Assembly: GCA_040756715.1 (NCBI GenBank)
Contig: JBFLYE010000017.1
Location: 1 to 5,539, forward strand
Reading direction: 5' to 3'
Length of the DNA: 5,539 bases
Source of the DNA: JBFLYE01 sp040756715 [NCBI: bacterium]
Lineage (GTDB): Bacteria; UBA9089; UBA9088
Shown here: positions 290 through 5,125 of the stretch, one piece after another
Position numbering within the stretch: position 1 is the first letter of the stretch
Layout: each line of letters begins with the position of its first letter
Program-made: the position numbers and the translations under genes
The notes under the pieces: generated by a model
Told to the model about the DNA's origin: nothing
The model's database searches: none
The model's input: the letters and a program-made list of their open reading frames with translations, nothing else

Positions 290-811
290 ATGATAAAGAT
301 TATCCTTTCTGATATAACTGAGCAAGATTGTGATGCAATTGTCAATGCGGCAAATTCTAGTTTAATGGGTGGAGGTGGGGTTGATGGAGCAATCCATAGA
401 AAGGGTGGAGAAAAAATCCTTGAGGAATGCAAGGAGATTATAAAAAAGATAGGGTATCTTGAAACAGGAAGGGCTGTCATTACAAGGGGTGGAAACCTTA
501 AGGCAAAATTTGTTATCCATACCGTAGGTCCAATCTGGAGGGGTGGAAAAAATAGGGAGGAAAGCCTTTTAAAGAGCTGTTATCAAGAGAGCCTAAAGCT
601 TGCTTTGGAAAATAATTTAAAAACAATTGCATTCCCATCCATATCTACAGGTGCTTATGGCTATCCAAAGGAATTGGCTGCACCTGTTGCGCTGAGAGCG
701 GTTTCTGATTTTTTAAAGGAAGAAAAAGGAATACAAGAGGTAAGGTTTGTCTTGTTTGATAAAGAAACATTTTCTGTTTATAAGGAGGCATTAGATGATC
801 TCAGCGGTTGA
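290..811 (+). CDS. ymdB: Macro-domain protein, YmdB-like O-acetyl-ADP-ribose deacetylase
   Basis: A single macro domain fills all 173 residues, close to the 177 of E. coli YmdB. Proteins of this family bind ADP-ribose and hydrolyse O-acetyl-ADP-ribose, and some remove mono-ADP-ribose from acidic residues; E. coli YmdB also modulates RNase III. The hallmark NAAN at 19-22 is followed by MGGGGVDGAIH (26-36). N22 and D32 correspond to the catalytic-site N25 and D35 of YmdB, and D8 to the adenine-binding aspartate. HTVGPIWRGG (77-86) and the phosphate loop STGAYGYP (119-126) are present, so the active site looks intact. ATG at 290 is the only usable start: an in-frame stop lies at 269-271, and AAAGG (274-278) is a weak, distant Shine-Dalgarno. 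The 3' end overlaps efp by 17 bases, so the two are almost certainly co-transcribed. The exact physiological substrate is not deducible. Confidence 0.92.
   Translation: MIKIILSDITEQDCDAIVNAANSSLMGGGGVDGAIHRKGGEKILEECKEIIKKIGYLETGRAVITRGGNLKAKFVIHTVGPIWRGGKNREESLLKSCYQESLKLALENNLKTIAFPSISTGAYGYPKELAAPVALRAVSDFLKEEKGIQEVRFVLFDKETFSVYKEALDDLSG
782..788 (+). promoter_or_regulatory. Strong Shine-Dalgarno of efp, inside the macro-domain gene
   Basis: AAGGAGG ends six bases before the ATG at 795. It is the best ribosome-binding site in the window and fixes the efp start inside the coding end of the upstream gene. It implies that efp is translated at a high rate independently of the macro-domain gene. 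Confidence 0.8.
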
Positions 812-1358
812 TTTAAGGGCGGGGAAGAATATTGAATTTAACAATTCAATATGCACGGTGGTTGATTTTGCCCATATAAAACCAGGAAAAGGACCTGCAT
901 TTGTCAGGGTAAAGCTCAAATCCTGGAATACAGATGCTACAACAGAATACACATTTAGACCTGAACAAAAATTTACCCATGTTGAGGTTTATGAAAAGCA
1001 AAAGCAATATCTCTATAGAAATGGCGATGAATATTGTTTTATGGATACAGAGACATATGAACAGGTAAGTATAGGAAAGGACATTCTAAAGGATAATGCA
1101 AAGTATCTTACAGAAAATATGAATGTAGACTTTCTTGAGTATGACGGAAGGGTGGTCGGAGTAAAGCTTCCTCTAGTGGTTGAGCAGAAAATAAAAGAGA
1201 CAGAGCCAGGATTTAAGGGAGATACAGCAACGGGTGGGACAAAGCCAGCCATTACAGAGACAGGTTTAAACATCTCTGTTCCATTGTTTATTGAGATAGG
1301 CGATGTTGTAAAGATTGACACAAGAACGGGAAGTTATATTGAAAGAGTGAAGAAATGA
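795..1358 (+). CDS. efp: Elongation factor P with a PGKGP loop
   Basis: The 187-residue protein has the normal EF-P length and its three beta-barrel domains. EF-P binds between the ribosomal P and E sites and relieves stalling on consecutive prolines. It opens with MISAVDLRAGKNIEF, and the loop that reaches the peptidyl-transferase centre reads HIKPGKGPAFVR (27-38), with K32 at the tip. The family signature KGDTATGGTKPA is at 141-152, and the C terminus GSYIERVKK is typical. The residue after KG is Pro, giving the palindromic PGKGP loop reported in an actinobacterial EF-P subfamily whose lysine stays unmodified; most EF-Ps have another residue there. No modification gene (epmA, epmB, earP) is seen nearby. 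The gene overlaps the upstream macro-domain gene by 17 bases and the next gene by the ATGA at 1355-1358, so it is mid-operon. The family call is certain; the lack of modification is inference. Confidence 0.97.
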   Translation: MISAVDLRAGKNIEFNNSICTVVDFAHIKPGKGPAFVRVKLKSWNTDATTEYTFRPEQKFTHVEVYEKQKQYLYRNGDEYCFMDTETYEQVSIGKDILKDNAKYLTENMNVDFLEYDGRVVGVKLPLVVEQKIKETEPGFKGDTATGGTKPAITETGLNISVPLFIEIGDVVKIDTRTGSYIERVKK

Positions 1359-1714
1359 AAGAGGAAAGAATAAGGGAATTGAATACCCTGATGAACAAGA
1401 TGGGTATCCTCGAATTGGAGGTAAAGGATGGTGATTTTGAGTGTAAGATAAAAAAGCGATCCCTATCGCCCCTGCCAGTAATGCAAGAGGAGGAAAAAAA
1501 CCTTCCCATTGTTATAAAATCACCCACGGTTGGCATTTTTTATCCCAAAGTAGAGGAAAACAATATTGTTTCATCCTCACAGGCTATAGGAACCATAATG
1601 GTTGTAGGTCATCCCCATGAGGTTGTTTCTCCCCAGGATGGAAAGGTTATTCAGGTTTTGGTAAAGGAGGGATTTCCCGTTGAATATGGCCAGCCTTTAG
1701 TTCTCATTTCATAA
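1355..1714 (+). CDS. Biotin carboxyl carrier-like protein lacking the biotinyl-lysine
   Basis: By position after efp and by sequence this is an AccB-family protein, but it is only 119 residues against about 155 in E. coli. Residues 1-34 resemble the AccB N terminus; the usual Ala/Pro linker is cut to about 15 residues; 55-119 form the biotinyl-domain barrel (SPTVGIFYP at 56-64, PVEYGQPLVLIS at 108-119). Aligned to E. coli AccB, the EAMKM motif becomes MVVGH (82-86), with Gly85 in place of the lysine that carries biotin and no lysine from 66 to 96. About eight residues are also missing after FY, where E. coli has its thumb loop. It therefore should not be biotinylated. It joins efp by ATGA and tsaD by TAATG, and accC does not follow. 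The frame is intact, which argues for a maintained protein. It may resemble plant BADC proteins, non-biotinylated AccB homologues that regulate acetyl-CoA carboxylase, or have a new role; neither is shown. Confidence 0.85.
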   Translation: MKEERIRELNTLMNKMGILELEVKDGDFECKIKKRSLSPLPVMQEEEKNLPIVIKSPTVGIFYPKVEENNIVSSSQAIGTIMVVGHPHEVVSPQDGKVIQVLVKEGFPVEYGQPLVLIS

Positions 1715-2700
1715 TGTTCCTTGGCATTGAAACCTCCTGCGATGAGACAAGCATTGGGGTAATTGACGAAAATTACAACCTCCTTTCCTGTGTCATATTT
1801 TCTCAGGATGAGATTCATAAAGAATGGGGTGGTATCTTTCCAGAGCTTGCATCCAGGGCACACCTTGAAAGGATAAGGATGGTATTTGACAAGGCAATTT
1901 TGGATGCTGATATTAAAATTAGTGATATTAAGGCAATTGGGGTAACATATGGGCCTGGGCTTATTGGTTCTCTTCTTGTAGGTCTTTCATTCGCCAAAGG
2001 GTTAAGTATTTCTTTAAATGTCCCATTGTATGGGATAAACCACCTTGATGGACATCTCTCCCTTCCCTTGATTGAGAATAGAAACATTCCCCTTCCTGGC
2101 ATAGGGCTTATTGTATCAGGTGGCCATACTGAGCTTGTATATATCAAGGATTGGGGGATATATGAAAGCCTGGGAAGAACCCTTGATGATGCTGTGGGAG
2201 AGGCGTTTGATAAGGTGGCAAGGCTTCTTGGGTTTTCCTTCCCTGGCGGACCAATCATAGATGAGATTTCTAAAAAGGGAAAGCCGAGCATAAAATTCCC
2301 TATTGCTAAGATAAAAAAGAAAGGATTTGATTTCAGCTTTTCAGGGATTAAAACCGCTGTTTTTTATTATTTAAGGGACAATAAAGGCTATTCAAGAGAG
2401 GATGTTGCTTGTTCTTTTCAGGAGGCTGTAATAAGGGCTTTGATAATTAGGGTTAAAGAAGCTTTATCTTATAAGGATGCAAAAAGCATTATCTTAGGTG
2501 GTGGGGTTGCTTGTAATACCCTGCTTAGACAGAGAATAAAAGAAGAGGGAGAAAAAAGAAAAATCCCTATATTCTTCCCCTCAAAAAGGCTATGTATAGA
2601 TAATGGAGCAATGATAGCAGCTGCTCTTTTAAGAAAGATTAGAAATAACGAACCTCCCTTTCCCCTCTCTATTTCTCCTGAACCAAGTATTAAGCTATGA
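1714..2700 (+). CDS. tsaD: tRNA N6-threonylcarbamoyladenosine transferase TsaD
   Basis: TsaD (Gcp/Kae1/Qri7 family) transfers the threonylcarbamoyl group from threonylcarbamoyl-AMP to A37 of ANN-decoding tRNAs, working in bacteria with TsaB and TsaE. The 328-residue length is close to the 337 of E. coli. The N terminus MFLGIETSCDETSIGV is diagnostic, followed by GGIFPELASRAHL (39-51), the ASKHA fold glycine motif YGPGLIGSLLVG (79-90), and the metal-binding histidines H110 and H114 in INHLDGHL. VSGGHTEL (134-141), LDDAVGEAFDKVARLLG and GGGVACN follow, and D296 in CIDNGAMIA is the C-terminal metal ligand. All key residues are present. The start overlaps the stop of the AccB-like gene by one base (TAATG) and no Shine-Dalgarno is visible, so translation is probably coupled. 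It is the last gene of the operon and converges on acsB. TsaB and TsaE are not in the window. Confidence 0.97.
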   Translation: MFLGIETSCDETSIGVIDENYNLLSCVIFSQDEIHKEWGGIFPELASRAHLERIRMVFDKAILDADIKISDIKAIGVTYGPGLIGSLLVGLSFAKGLSISLNVPLYGINHLDGHLSLPLIENRNIPLPGIGLIVSGGHTELVYIKDWGIYESLGRTLDDAVGEAFDKVARLLGFSFPGGPIIDEISKKGKPSIKFPIAKIKKKGFDFSFSGIKTAVFYYLRDNKGYSREDVACSFQEAVIRALIIRVKEALSYKDAKSIILGGGVACNTLLRQRIKEEGEKRKIPIFFPSKRLCIDNGAMIAAALLRKIRNNEPPFPLSISPEPSIKL

Positions 2701-2751: not shown

Positions 2752-4962
2752 TTATATTATCGCCTCCATTGAGAGACAGGGATGGTTTTTCTCTTTGCAC
2801 CAATTTAAGACTTCCTCTTCGGTTAAGGCGTTTTCCTCAGTGGCAATTAGCTCAAAAAGATTGGGAATTCCCTCCTCTTCTCCCCTTCTTTTTAATACAT
2901 CGGCAAGGGCTTCCTTTAACTTATTTGGCATCCAAACAAGCCTCTTTATTCCACCCTCTGCCTTAAGATACTTCTTTGAGCCGATATAAAACTTTGAATG
3001 TCCAATAAATCCAGGGGTTTGCTGGCCTCCACCTACAGAGCCAGCTAGGGTTGAGAATTTCATGCCGCAAGGGGTCATCCCAGTATGGTCTCTATCCACA
3101 ATCATAATCCCAGAAACCGAAGGAAGGAGAACCGAGATGCACTCAAAGCAACCGCAGGAAGTCATTGGGTCAACCATTATTGAATAGGCAGACATTCGTT
3201 CAATCTTGTTGTGAGACCTCTCTAAAACAGCTCTATTTACATTATCCCATTGCCCAAGGCTTTCATCAATAACATTTCCCTTTTTTATTGGCTGATTTGG
3301 TCCAGTTGGAGAGATTTGATGGGCGGCTTTTGTATCAAGCCAGTTATATGCTCCGCATAAGCCAGAACGCTCTGGGGTAACAATACAGACATGGTTTGGA
3401 GCAAATGATTGGCATAGGGTGCAGGAATAGAAGGTATCTACGCCTTCATCGGTTAAGCCAGCCATCCTTTCATCCCTTGCTTTATAAACCTTTCTGGCAA
3501 TCTCCCTTTTTTCCTTTATCGTTTCTTCTTCTGTATAGAGAAAAACAGAAACCTTATCAAGAATACTTGAATATTCATGGTGGAATTTGGCATAGATTAT
3601 CTTTCCAATATGGACTAGCCTAAAACCATTCTTATACGCCTCCTTGCTTATCCTTATCCAGCTTATATCCCTCTGGCCTATATGCAAAACACCCGAGGCG
3701 GCATTTAGGGATTCATGGATATGACGCTCTAATATTGGCTCAAAATCCTTTTGCATTTTTGCACCAGAAACCTCAACCCATATCCCCAAAGCCATAGAGC
3801 CTCCTTCCTCTACACTATCAAGGTCAAAGCCGATAACCTCTATTTTTCCATCCTCTACCTCATTGCTTGGCTTTGTGGTTACATATTCAAAGGTGGGTTT
3901 TTTTGTTCTCATCTCATTTATCTCAACAAACATATCCTCCTTTCTTATCCTTTCTCCCGAAAAGGCAGGGCCATAGGGAACAGGTATGTCAATCTTTGCC
4001 GTAATTACCTTAAGCCCTCTGACATATATCGCCTTCTCTACCATTTTGTCAAAGGGAACATTGGAAACAACATGCTCATACATACAAACACCGGTAGGAA
4101 GGATTTCGGGAATTGGCGTATAAGAGATTACCGGAAATCCATAGTTTATTGCCCCTGCTGCTGTAGCATACCATTCATCTGAAACCTCTCCTAATGCAAG
4201 GATAAAGGCAAATACCCGATGGCGATTATATAAAAGGTTTCTTCTATAATCTCCGGGTGCAACACCACCAAAGGACATTGCGGCACGAGAGGCAAAACCC
4301 AAAGCAAAAACAGCAGAATATATATCCTTGCCAAATGGAACAAGCCTAGTTTCCCATCCCAATTGGACATCAGCCTCCCTTAATTGCTCTGCCATTGAAA
4401 CACCGTTGTTTTCTGCGTGTAAAAAGACATAGAGAGTTTTTTCTTGAAGTTCCCTTGCTAGTTTAGCGGCCGTCTCTTTATCAGGGCAACAACCCACACA
4501 GGCAGCAAACCCAGGGGCAGAGCCATCAACAAATTCAATCCCCCTCTCCCTCATTATCTTATCATCTGCTGCACCAAGCCATAGATGGGTTTCATCTGGA
4601 GAGGGTGCGATAAAATAGGGGCAGGGGTCTTCTAAATATTTTAATACCTCAATGATCTCCTCATTCCATAAGGTTGCCATTCCAGCATCAAGGGTCTCTC
4701 CAAGGTATGGAAGGTTAATGTGTTTTGCGGGAATTTCTGGAAGCAAATCCTTTGCCATTTTTAAAACCTTCTCACAATCAGCAAGGGTTTTTACCGGAAT
4801 TCCTGTCATTGCATAGATTATGGGAAGATAATAGCCGGTGTTTGGAAATTCAATGCTTTTTTCTGGAGAAAATCTATCAATTGCCTTAAAAAGCCTTGTT
4901 TCTGCCTCCTTGGCTATTCTGTGCGCTCCCCTTATTGCAGCTTGAGCAATTATTTTTGACAT
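2752..4962 (-). CDS. acsB: Acetyl-CoA synthase (CODH/ACS complex, bacterial AcsB)
   Basis: AcsB condenses CO, a methyl group from the corrinoid iron-sulfur protein and CoA into acetyl-CoA in the Wood-Ljungdahl pathway. At 736 residues it is a full-length bacterial form (about 729 in Moorella), including the N-terminal domain that docks on CO dehydrogenase; archaeal CdhC lacks that domain. The A-cluster is complete: CTLC with C514 and C517, C526 in PNHVC, C536 in SGLC, and CGC (603-605). These match Moorella C506, C509, C518, C528, C595 and C597 with a constant offset of eight. C514, C526 and C536 would hold the Fe4S4 cluster, C517 would bridge it to the proximal nickel, and C603 and C605 would bind the distal nickel. 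F520 and W435 sit where Moorella has pocket aromatics. An unusual C155-x-x-C158-C159 lies in the N-terminal domain. No other pathway gene is in the window. It has its own promoter, with no Shine-Dalgarno before the ATG. Confidence 0.97.
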   Translation of the reverse strand: MSKIIAQAAIRGAHRIAKEAETRLFKAIDRFSPEKSIEFPNTGYYLPIIYAMTGIPVKTLADCEKVLKMAKDLLPEIPAKHINLPYLGETLDAGMATLWNEEIIEVLKYLEDPCPYFIAPSPDETHLWLGAADDKIMRERGIEFVDGSAPGFAACVGCCPDKETAAKLARELQEKTLYVFLHAENNGVSMAEQLREADVQLGWETRLVPFGKDIYSAVFALGFASRAAMSFGGVAPGDYRRNLLYNRHRVFAFILALGEVSDEWYATAAGAINYGFPVISYTPIPEILPTGVCMYEHVVSNVPFDKMVEKAIYVRGLKVITAKIDIPVPYGPAFSGERIRKEDMFVEINEMRTKKPTFEYVTTKPSNEVEDGKIEVIGFDLDSVEEGGSMALGIWVEVSGAKMQKDFEPILERHIHESLNAASGVLHIGQRDISWIRISKEAYKNGFRLVHIGKIIYAKFHHEYSSILDKVSVFLYTEEETIKEKREIARKVYKARDERMAGLTDEGVDTFYSCTLCQSFAPNHVCIVTPERSGLCGAYNWLDTKAAHQISPTGPNQPIKKGNVIDESLGQWDNVNRAVLERSHNKIERMSAYSIMVDPMTSCGCFECISVLLPSVSGIMIVDRDHTGMTPCGMKFSTLAGSVGGGQQTPGFIGHSKFYIGSKKYLKAEGGIKRLVWMPNKLKEALADVLKRRGEEEGIPNLFELIATEENALTEEEVLNWCKEKNHPCLSMEAII

Positions 4963-5020: not shown

Positions 5021-5125
5021 ATGAGTAGCGTTGTTAAGAAAAGAAGGAAGAAGATAAGAAAGCATAAATACGAGAAGCTTAGGAAGAGGCTTCGGGCTGA
5101 AAGAAAGAGGTATGGAAAGCTGTGA
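5021..5125 (+). CDS. bS22-like small ribosomal protein (AURKAIP1/COX24 domain)
   Basis: A 34-residue, extremely basic protein: 10 Lys and 8 Arg. It begins MSSVVKKRRKKIRKHKYEKL, which matches the pattern of the AURKAIP1/COX24 C-terminal domain family, best known as the roughly 33-residue bS22 found in mycobacterial 30S subunits (consensus start MGSVIKKRRKRM, then KHRKL). Homologous domains occur in mitochondrial small-subunit proteins. It probably binds rRNA in the 30S subunit. A Shine-Dalgarno and a consensus promoter lie just upstream, which supports real expression despite the size. The stop codon lies inside glmU, with a 14-base overlap in another frame, so translation of the two is likely coupled. 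The family call rests on motif recognition and composition only; a generic basic peptide is the alternative. Confidence 0.85.
   Translation: MSSVVKKRRKKIRKHKYEKLRKRLRAERKRYGKL

What the first reader, a model, noticed from the sequence alone, without database searches (positions are those of the whole stretch)
1355..1714. AccB-family protein that has lost its biotin attachment lysine and thumb
Seen: an intact 119-codon frame in the usual accB position after efp, with AccB-like N and C termini, but MVVGH where EAMKM should be (Gly85 at the biotinyl-lysine site) and about eight residues missing at the thumb. No lysine lies between 66 and 96. The next gene is tsaD, not accC. Known: plants have BADC proteins, AccB homologues without the lysine that regulate acetyl-CoA carboxylase. 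Inference: this could be a bacterial counterpart, a subunit of another complex, or an AccB fold recruited for a role linked to EF-P or TsaD. An open frame with smooth overlaps on both sides argues against decay.
Basis: partly seen in the sequence, partly recalled or inferred. Interest (0 to 1): 0.75.

Follow-up and report, generated by a model that had tools for sequence, protein, structure and literature searches.

The report
Biotin-less partner subunit of acetyl-CoA carboxylase
This bacterial gene makes a copy of the protein that normally carries biotin for fatty-acid synthesis but can no longer hold biotin, and several groups of bacteria keep such a copy beside a normal one, which suggests that one enzyme subunit has been divided into a docking half and a carrier half.

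Summary
In detail: window 1355-1714 encodes a 119-aa AccB homologue with Gly85 at the biotinyl-lysine site and eight residues missing at the thumb. The three other copies found in its order share both losses, and dN/dS is low. The genome also has an ordinary AccB with EAMK, accC, accD and a biotin ligase.

It is not a local oddity. Lysine-less AccB was read in 101 genomes: 10 of 18 in this phylum; 59 of 59, 14 of 17 and 2 of 2 in three other classes; 16 of 45 further relatives of one class; and 0 of 60 others. It lies directly upstream of accC in 82 of 101; its lysine-bearing partner in 0 of 90.

The copies have complementary losses: the lysine-less one keeps a C-terminal VE[YF] motif (98 of 101) that partners have lost (1 of 90 keeps it), while partners keep lysine and thumb; single AccBs keep everything.

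Best reading: a non-catalytic, BADC-like AccB that docks on AccC while another AccB carries biotin. Binding is inferred. I found no bacterial counterpart in the open paper library.

The parts
1355..1714 (+). accB* : lysine-less AccB homologue, 119 aa
   Evidence: purifying selection
1361..1402 (+). N-terminal helix (residues 3-16 of the model)
   Evidence: AlphaFold2 model, (block pLDDT 71-73 here)
1412..1453 (+). N-terminal beta-hairpin (residues 20-33), the AccB element that in Chloroflexus BC1 clamps two biotin carboxylase dimers
   Evidence: strands 20-25, 28-33; block pLDDT 57-72; role from PMC11077971
1508..1708 (+). biotinyl-type domain (residues 52-118)
   Evidence: Foldseek rmsd 0.9 A to 1bdo and 4hr7_G
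1541..1546 (+). site of the thumb deletion (between Tyr63 and Pro64, eight alignment columns empty)
1607..1609 (+). Gly85 codon at the biotinyl-lysine site, in the turn between strands 77-83 and 86-91
1679..1687 (+). VEY motif (residues 109-111), kept by lysine-less copies and lost by their lysine-bearing partners
795..1358 (+). efp, ordinary upstream neighbour of accB; not part of the system
1714..2700 (+). tsaD, immediate downstream neighbour here and in G002 only; not part of the system

Best explanation
The gene encodes a non-biotinylated AccB paralogue (AccB*) that works as a structural, docking subunit of acetyl-CoA carboxylase, much as BADC does in plant plastids. The ancestral AccB did two jobs: it docked on AccC and it carried biotin. 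In these bacteria the jobs are divided. AccB* keeps the VE[YF] loop and an N-terminal hairpin and is proposed to sit on AccC and pair with the other AccB. The partner AccB keeps EAMKM, the thumb and its own hairpin, is biotinylated, and shuttles carboxyl groups between AccC and AccA-AccD. Shown here: the conserved loss of lysine, the co-occurrence of two copies, the accC linkage in most groups, the complementary losses and purifying selection. Inferred: binding to AccC and AccB, the docking role of VE[YF], biotinylation of the partner, and the effect on activity (assembly aid rather than inhibitor).
For: Lysine-less copies in 101 genomes, Lys replaced by G 88, D 4, H 3, N 3, Q 2, R 1. A lysine-bearing AccB was also fetched in 89 of those 101. 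accC directly downstream of the lysine-less copy in 82 of 101, of the partner in 0 of 90, and of AccB in genomes without a lysine-less copy in 76 of 99. VE[YF] in 85 of 87 single AccBs, 98 of 101 lysine-less copies and 1 of 90 partners; thumb columns complete in 87 of 87 singles and 90 of 90 partners, but at least five short in 67 of 101 lysine-less copies. In G005, G006, G007 and G011 both copies still have Lys, yet only the copy near accC has VE[YF]. NG86 dN/dS 0.08-0.43 for six lysine-less pairs, 0.11-0.18 for three AccB-Lys pairs, 0.15 for tsaD and 0.12 for efp. No PYC_OADA match in 18 of 19 genomes of the phylum, so acetyl-CoA carboxylase is the evident client of the lysine-bearing AccB there. 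The model has the AccB hairpin and biotinyl fold. In Chloroflexus BC1 the BCCP hairpin, not the biotin-bearing core, makes the biotin carboxylase tetramer and raises its activity (PMC11077971, passages and Discussion part 1).
Against: No binding data. The hairpin is not what distinguishes the copies: its columns are well filled in 90 of 90 partners and 86 of 87 singles but only 87 of 101 lysine-less copies, so the partner may still dock by its own hairpin. In the window's order accC is on another contig, so linkage is lost in exactly this lineage; 19 of 101 copies in all lack it. accA was not found in G000, probably a gap in a 218-contig assembly. Twelve of 101 genomes gave no lysine-bearing AccB among the fetched loci; G003, G004, G009 and G015 had a second match and G481 that I did not fetch. 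Trees cannot say whether the lysine-less proteins have one origin or several. The site alignment of G036 and G183 is unsure; a Lys stands two positions before the expected one. The E. coli BC-BCCP tetramer is held by BCCP cores rather than hairpins (PMC11077971).
Confidence: 0.65

Rival explanations
1. AccB* is a negative regulator: it occupies AccC, or mixes into AccB oligomers, without biotin and so lowers carboxylase activity (the inhibitory model once proposed for plant BADC), or it acts in autoregulation of the acc operon.
For: Same anatomy as for the assembly model; inhibitory BADC model cited in PMC11926652. Loss of thumb and lysine is compatible with a dominant-negative carrier.
Against: In the class of G022 every one of the 59 AccB-bearing genomes has the lysine-less copy, next to accC in 52 of 59, while 0 of 59 lysine-bearing frames are; this fits a standing subunit better than an optional brake. 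The partner has lost VE[YF] in 89 of 90, so it may depend on AccB* rather than be opposed by it. Neither point excludes inhibition.
Confidence: 0.18
2. AccB* has left acetyl-CoA carboxylase and serves another complex, for example with EF-P or TsaD or another AccC-like enzyme.
For: In the window's order the gene is not next to accC and is joined by overlaps to efp and tsaD in G000.
Against: tsaD adjacency is not kept in G003 and G004. efp adjacency is the ordinary accB position. Only one match to the biotin carboxylase C-terminal family was found in G000. Outside the phylum 78 of 91 lysine-less copies sit next to accC.
Confidence: 0.1
3. The lysine-less frame is a decaying relic of a duplicated accB.
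For: A second, intact AccB exists in the same genome; thumb and lysine are lost.
Against: dN/dS 0.08-0.43 in six pairs; all 101 copies were read as open frames, a few cut by contig ends; the aromatic residue of VE[YF] is kept in 101 of 101; present in 59 of 59 AccB-bearing genomes of one class.
Confidence: 0.03
4. The lysine-bearing second AccB belongs to another biotin enzyme (such as a two-subunit pyruvate carboxylase), so these genomes would lack a carrier for acetyl-CoA carboxylase or use one carrier for both.
For: In G005 the second AccB is fused to a PYC_OADA protein.
Against: No PYC_OADA match in the 18 other genomes of the phylum, while accA is found in 18 of 19 and accC in 16 of 19. 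Not tested in the other classes.
Confidence: 0.06

Closest known systems
BADC proteins of the plastid heteromeric acetyl-CoA carboxylase (Arabidopsis BADC1-3; PMC11926652, passages and section 12)
   Same: BCCP homologue without the biotinylation motif, in an organism that also has a biotinylated BCCP; 25-30% identity to BCCP there, 35% to the genome's own AccB here.
   Different: Bacterial, and in most of the genomes found it stands in the accB position before accC; the lysine-bearing partner has a matching loss (VE[YF]); thumb often reduced. Shared ancestry with plant BADC and binding to BC and BCCP were not tested.
AccB / BCCP of bacterial acetyl-CoA carboxylase (TIGR00531; E. coli 4HR7, 1BDO)
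   Same: Fold, N-terminal helix and hairpin, VE[YF] loop, efp neighbourhood.
   Different: No biotinyl lysine, thumb missing here, below the TIGR00531 cut-off.
Fused BC-BCCP protein BC1 of Chloroflexus aurantiacus (PMC11077971)
   Same: BCCP hairpin with a structural role independent of the biotin-bearing core.
   Different: Fused to BC and still biotinylated on Lys553.
Non-catalytic 'glue' or epsilon subunits of bacterial acyl-CoA carboxylases (passage in PMC11926652; listing of PMC13118682)
   Same: A non-catalytic subunit that assembles a biotin-dependent carboxylase.
   Different: From recall, epsilon subunits are not BCCP homologues; not compared here.

Membership tests
AccB / BCCP (TIGR00531) | Score over the curated cut-off | tested here: not met
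   39.4 bits against 115.2
AccB / BCCP (TIGR00531) | Biotinyl lysine in EAMKM | tested here: not met
   Gly85; same in the four copies of the order
AccB / BCCP (TIGR00531) | Biotinyl-domain fold | tested here: met
   predicted model, rmsd 0.9 A to 1bdo over 76 columns
AccB / BCCP (TIGR00531) | Thumb | tested here: not met
   eight columns missing
AccB / BCCP (TIGR00531) | N-terminal helix and hairpin | tested here: met
   (moderate confidence); profile of lysine-less proteins matches 4hr7_B over residues 19-176
BADC-like non-catalytic BCCP | BCCP homologue without the biotinylation motif | tested here: met
BADC-like non-catalytic BCCP | A biotinylatable BCCP in the same organism | tested here: met
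   EAMKVFNEI copy in G000:C23 and a BPL match in C41; 89 of 101 genomes have a lysine-bearing copy among the fetched loci. Biotinylation itself not tested.
BADC-like non-catalytic BCCP | Binds BC and BCCP and affects holoenzyme assembly | not testable with these tools
   needs protein; linkage to accC is indirect evidence
BADC-like non-catalytic BCCP | Common descent with plant BADC | not tested
   no plant BADC sequence was compared

The most novel reading that the evidence does not exclude
In several bacterial lineages acetyl-CoA carboxylase is a five-subunit enzyme. AccB has split, perhaps more than once, into an obligate non-biotinylated docking subunit, usually made next to AccC, and a carrier that has lost part of its own docking surface. 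The matched losses mark the VE[YF] loop as the AccC-side contact of ordinary AccB.
Probability: 0.42. Interest if true: 0.82.

Novelty: new variant of a known kind. Interest (0 to 1): 0.72.

Why it matters
Non-biotinylated BCCP-like subunits are described as unique to the plant enzyme (abstract of PMC11926652), and it is disputed whether they assemble or inhibit it. A bacterial class in which all 59 AccB-bearing genomes examined have the split would give a simple system to decide it. The complementary losses also make a direct prediction about which AccB surface docks on AccC. Annotation should not count such genes as biotin carriers.

Tried and rejected
Sequencing error, recent mutation or decay: rejected by the conserved Gly in the order and low dN/dS. 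EF-P/TsaD partnership: neighbours not conserved. Pyruvate carboxylase as client of the second AccB: PYC_OADA in 1 of 19 genomes. Single origin of the lysine-less type: not decided. With the biotin-site columns removed three changes sufficed, all lysine-less rows as one clade gave p-AU 0.39 and those of the own phylum p-AU 0.076. With thumb and VE[YF] columns removed too the lysine-less label needs six changes (starred branches force two), p-AU 0.26, and the partners four, p-AU 0.40. A test on the class of G022 did not finish. A recent duplication inside the phylum is not rejected (p-AU 0.395).

Named relatives: the one scan of genome contigs gave a single named locus, UBA9088 contig DNCM01000152.1; the taxonomy has no such name. 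Kinship of the genomes to G035 is not shown, nor that of the classes of G022, G035 and G036 to each other, so I name no phyla. The 45 genomes taken and the 60 'other' ones were chosen from capped lists of matches to the window protein or to lysine-less profiles; they are no estimate of frequency.

Literature: searches found no bacterial lysine-less AccB in the open-access library; most subscription papers are not held. I saw listings only, except PMC11926652 (passages, section 12), PMC11077971 (passages, Discussion part 1) and PMC3199775 (passages).

Mistakes corrected: one search read 13 loci on the wrong strand; one search repeated it. My second notebook entry gives the BPL frame as L063 3295-4035, which is pantothenate kinase; the BPL match falls in L063 2601-3305. 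Seven carrier proteins with EAMKME or EAMKLES (G068, G183, G387-G389, G445, G569) were dropped before the counts (290 of 297 kept). They are still inside the genome totals: the three genomes of the class of G035 without a lysine-less copy have only such a protein, as have one of the 60 'other' genomes (G068) and one of the 45 (G569).

Full report
THE OBSERVATION. The frame at 1355-1714 is intact and encodes 119 residues. It matches the biotin/lipoyl domain (PF00364, E 5.8e-08, over the cut-off) and, below its cut-off, the acetyl-CoA carboxylase BCCP model TIGR00531 (39.4 of 115.2 bits). In the alignment of 27 AccB proteins the lysine column holds Gly85, MVVGHPHEV replaces EAMKVMNEV, and eight thumb columns are empty. 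The gene overlaps efp and tsaD.

THE SAME GENOME. G000 (1.55 Mb, 218 contigs, 96% complete) has a second, ordinary AccB with EAMKVFNEI and a full thumb at C23, after a CvpA-like gene. It has accC (C144), accD with its zinc ribbon (C119) and a biotin ligase match (C41). accA was not found in G000 but was found in the 18 other genomes of the phylum searched. PYC_OADA, a domain of pyruvate carboxylase and oxaloacetate decarboxylase, gave no match in 18 of 19 genomes. So acetyl-CoA carboxylase is the evident client of the lysine-bearing AccB.

CONSERVATION. The three other copies found in the order (G002, G003, G004) also have Gly at the site and the same eight-residue gap. In G001, same genus, a contig begins with the last 17 residues of this protein, identical. 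NG86 dN/dS is 0.077 (G000-G002, dS saturated at 2.8), 0.199 (G003-G004), 0.232, 0.221, 0.267 and 0.426 for lysine-less pairs of the phylum, against 0.114-0.179 for three AccB-Lys pairs, 0.146 for tsaD and 0.115 for efp. YN00 failed for three of the eleven pairs and gave higher values for six of the other eight (up to 0.41 for lysine-less pairs). This is purifying selection, weaker in most lysine-less pairs than on the neighbours.

HOW WIDE IT IS. I searched 79 relatives with the protein, 386 genomes with a profile of 13 lysine-less sequences, the classes of G035 (18 genomes), G022 (61) and G036 (2), and 392 relatives of G035 with a second profile, and took stretches of chosen matches. Reading the lysine column in the AccB-like frames fetched: own phylum 10 of 18 genomes lysine-less (G 6, D 4); class of G035 14 of 17 (all G; the other three have only a carrier of another type); further relatives of G035 16 of 45 (G 9, N 3, H 3, Q 1), in 13 family codes; class of G036 2 of 2 (R, Q; alignment unsure); class of G022 59 of 59 (all G); other genomes 0 of 60. 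Genomes searched without any match (G010 of the own phylum, G386 of the class of G035, G426 and G427 of the class of G022) are outside these fractions. The replacements are mostly turn-forming residues (G, N, D), which fits a kept hairpin; in the model Gly85 lies in the turn between strands 77-83 and 86-91.

LINKAGE. The lysine-less copy is directly followed by accC in 82 of 101 cases (82 of 98 with at least 300 bases held downstream), its lysine-bearing partner in 0 of 90, and AccB of genomes without a lysine-less copy in 76 of 99. By group the lysine-less figures are 4 of 10 (own phylum), 9 of 14, 15 of 16, 2 of 2 and 52 of 59. So the copy that stayed before accC is usually the one that lost the lysine. 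In the window's order the lysine-less gene is itself separated from accC.

COMPLEMENTARY LOSSES. The motif VE[YF] near the C-terminus is present in 85 of 87 single AccBs, 98 of 101 lysine-less copies and 1 of 90 partners; the aromatic residue alone in 87 of 87, 101 of 101 and 1 of 90. The columns between the VG before the thumb and the lysine site are all filled in 87 of 87 singles and 90 of 90 partners; at least five are empty in 67 of 101 lysine-less copies. Each paralogue has kept what the other has lost. In G005, G006, G007 and G011 both copies still have Lys, but only the copy near accC has VE[YF], and in G006 and G011 its thumb is already reduced. These look like intermediates: the second copy lost VE[YF] first, the copy near accC lost its lysine later. 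E. coli BCCP has VEF at this place. Against a simple division, the N-terminal hairpin is kept by both: its columns are well filled in 90 of 90 partners, 86 of 87 singles and 87 of 101 lysine-less copies.

STRUCTURE. AlphaFold2 with 43 aligned sequences gave mean pLDDT 81.9 and pTM 0.53: helix 3-16 and hairpin 20-25/28-33 at moderate confidence, a low-confidence linker, and a biotinyl domain with block pLDDT 93-95. Foldseek matches 1bdo and 4hr7_G at 0.9 A and Arabidopsis BCCP1 (9a87) at 1.1 A.

MECHANISM. In Chloroflexus BC1 four BCCP hairpins form a barrel that joins two biotin carboxylase dimers; deleting the hairpin, not the biotin-bearing core, breaks the tetramer and lowers activity, whereas the E. 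coli tetramer is held by the cores (PMC11077971; passages, Discussion part 1). In plants BADC, a BCCP homologue without the motif, helps BC and BCCP assemble, although an inhibitory role was also proposed (PMC11926652; passages, section 12). That paper also says that the BC-contacting face of E. coli BCCP lies opposite the thumb. Putting these together, I propose that AccB* is the docking half and the partner the carrying half of a divided AccB, perhaps joined in mixed hairpin barrels. That the VE[YF] loop is the AccC contact is inference from the matched losses and the linkage. Assembly aid is favoured over inhibition because the partner appears to have lost one docking feature of its own.

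ORIGIN. The protein is short. With only the biotin-site columns removed, three changes suffice and one clade of lysine-less proteins is not rejected (p-AU 0.39). With thumb and VE[YF] columns also removed, six changes are needed, of which starred branches force two, and one clade is still not rejected (p-AU 0.26). One old split or several parallel ones both remain possible; parallel splits would strengthen the functional reading.

KNOWN OR NEW. Eight searches of the open-access library found BADC in plants but no bacterial counterpart; subscription papers are mostly not held. I rate it a new variant of a known kind: it works, most likely, like BADC, but membership in that family by descent was not tested.

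Noticed in passing
window 5021-5125 (+): A 34-aa basic ORF matching PF08213 (COX24_C, E 1.1e-10) between the acetyl-CoA synthase gene and glmU.
   Followed up: partly
window 2752-4962 (-): Bifunctional acetyl-CoA synthase (CODH/ACS alpha/beta, NF040764 1029 bits), so the organism has at least this part of the Wood-Ljungdahl pathway.
   Followed up: no
L061 5157-6323 (G000:C23): DarT ADP-ribosyltransferase and a macro domain in one 388-aa frame just after the lysine-bearing accB; a further macro-domain gene lies at window 290-811 before efp.
   Followed up: no
G014 and G018 (99-100% complete); also G008 (84%): No accC match and no AccB of the efp/accC type found, while a lysine-bearing AccB and accA are present: accC and that AccB are missing together.
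   Followed up: no
L087 921-2735 (G005:C1): The second AccB of G005 is fused to a PYC_OADA-type protein.
   Followed up: partly
L188/L189 (G036, G183): The AccB before accC has KHRR or KHQS at the site; a Lys stands two positions before the expected one and the alignment there is unsure.
   Followed up: no
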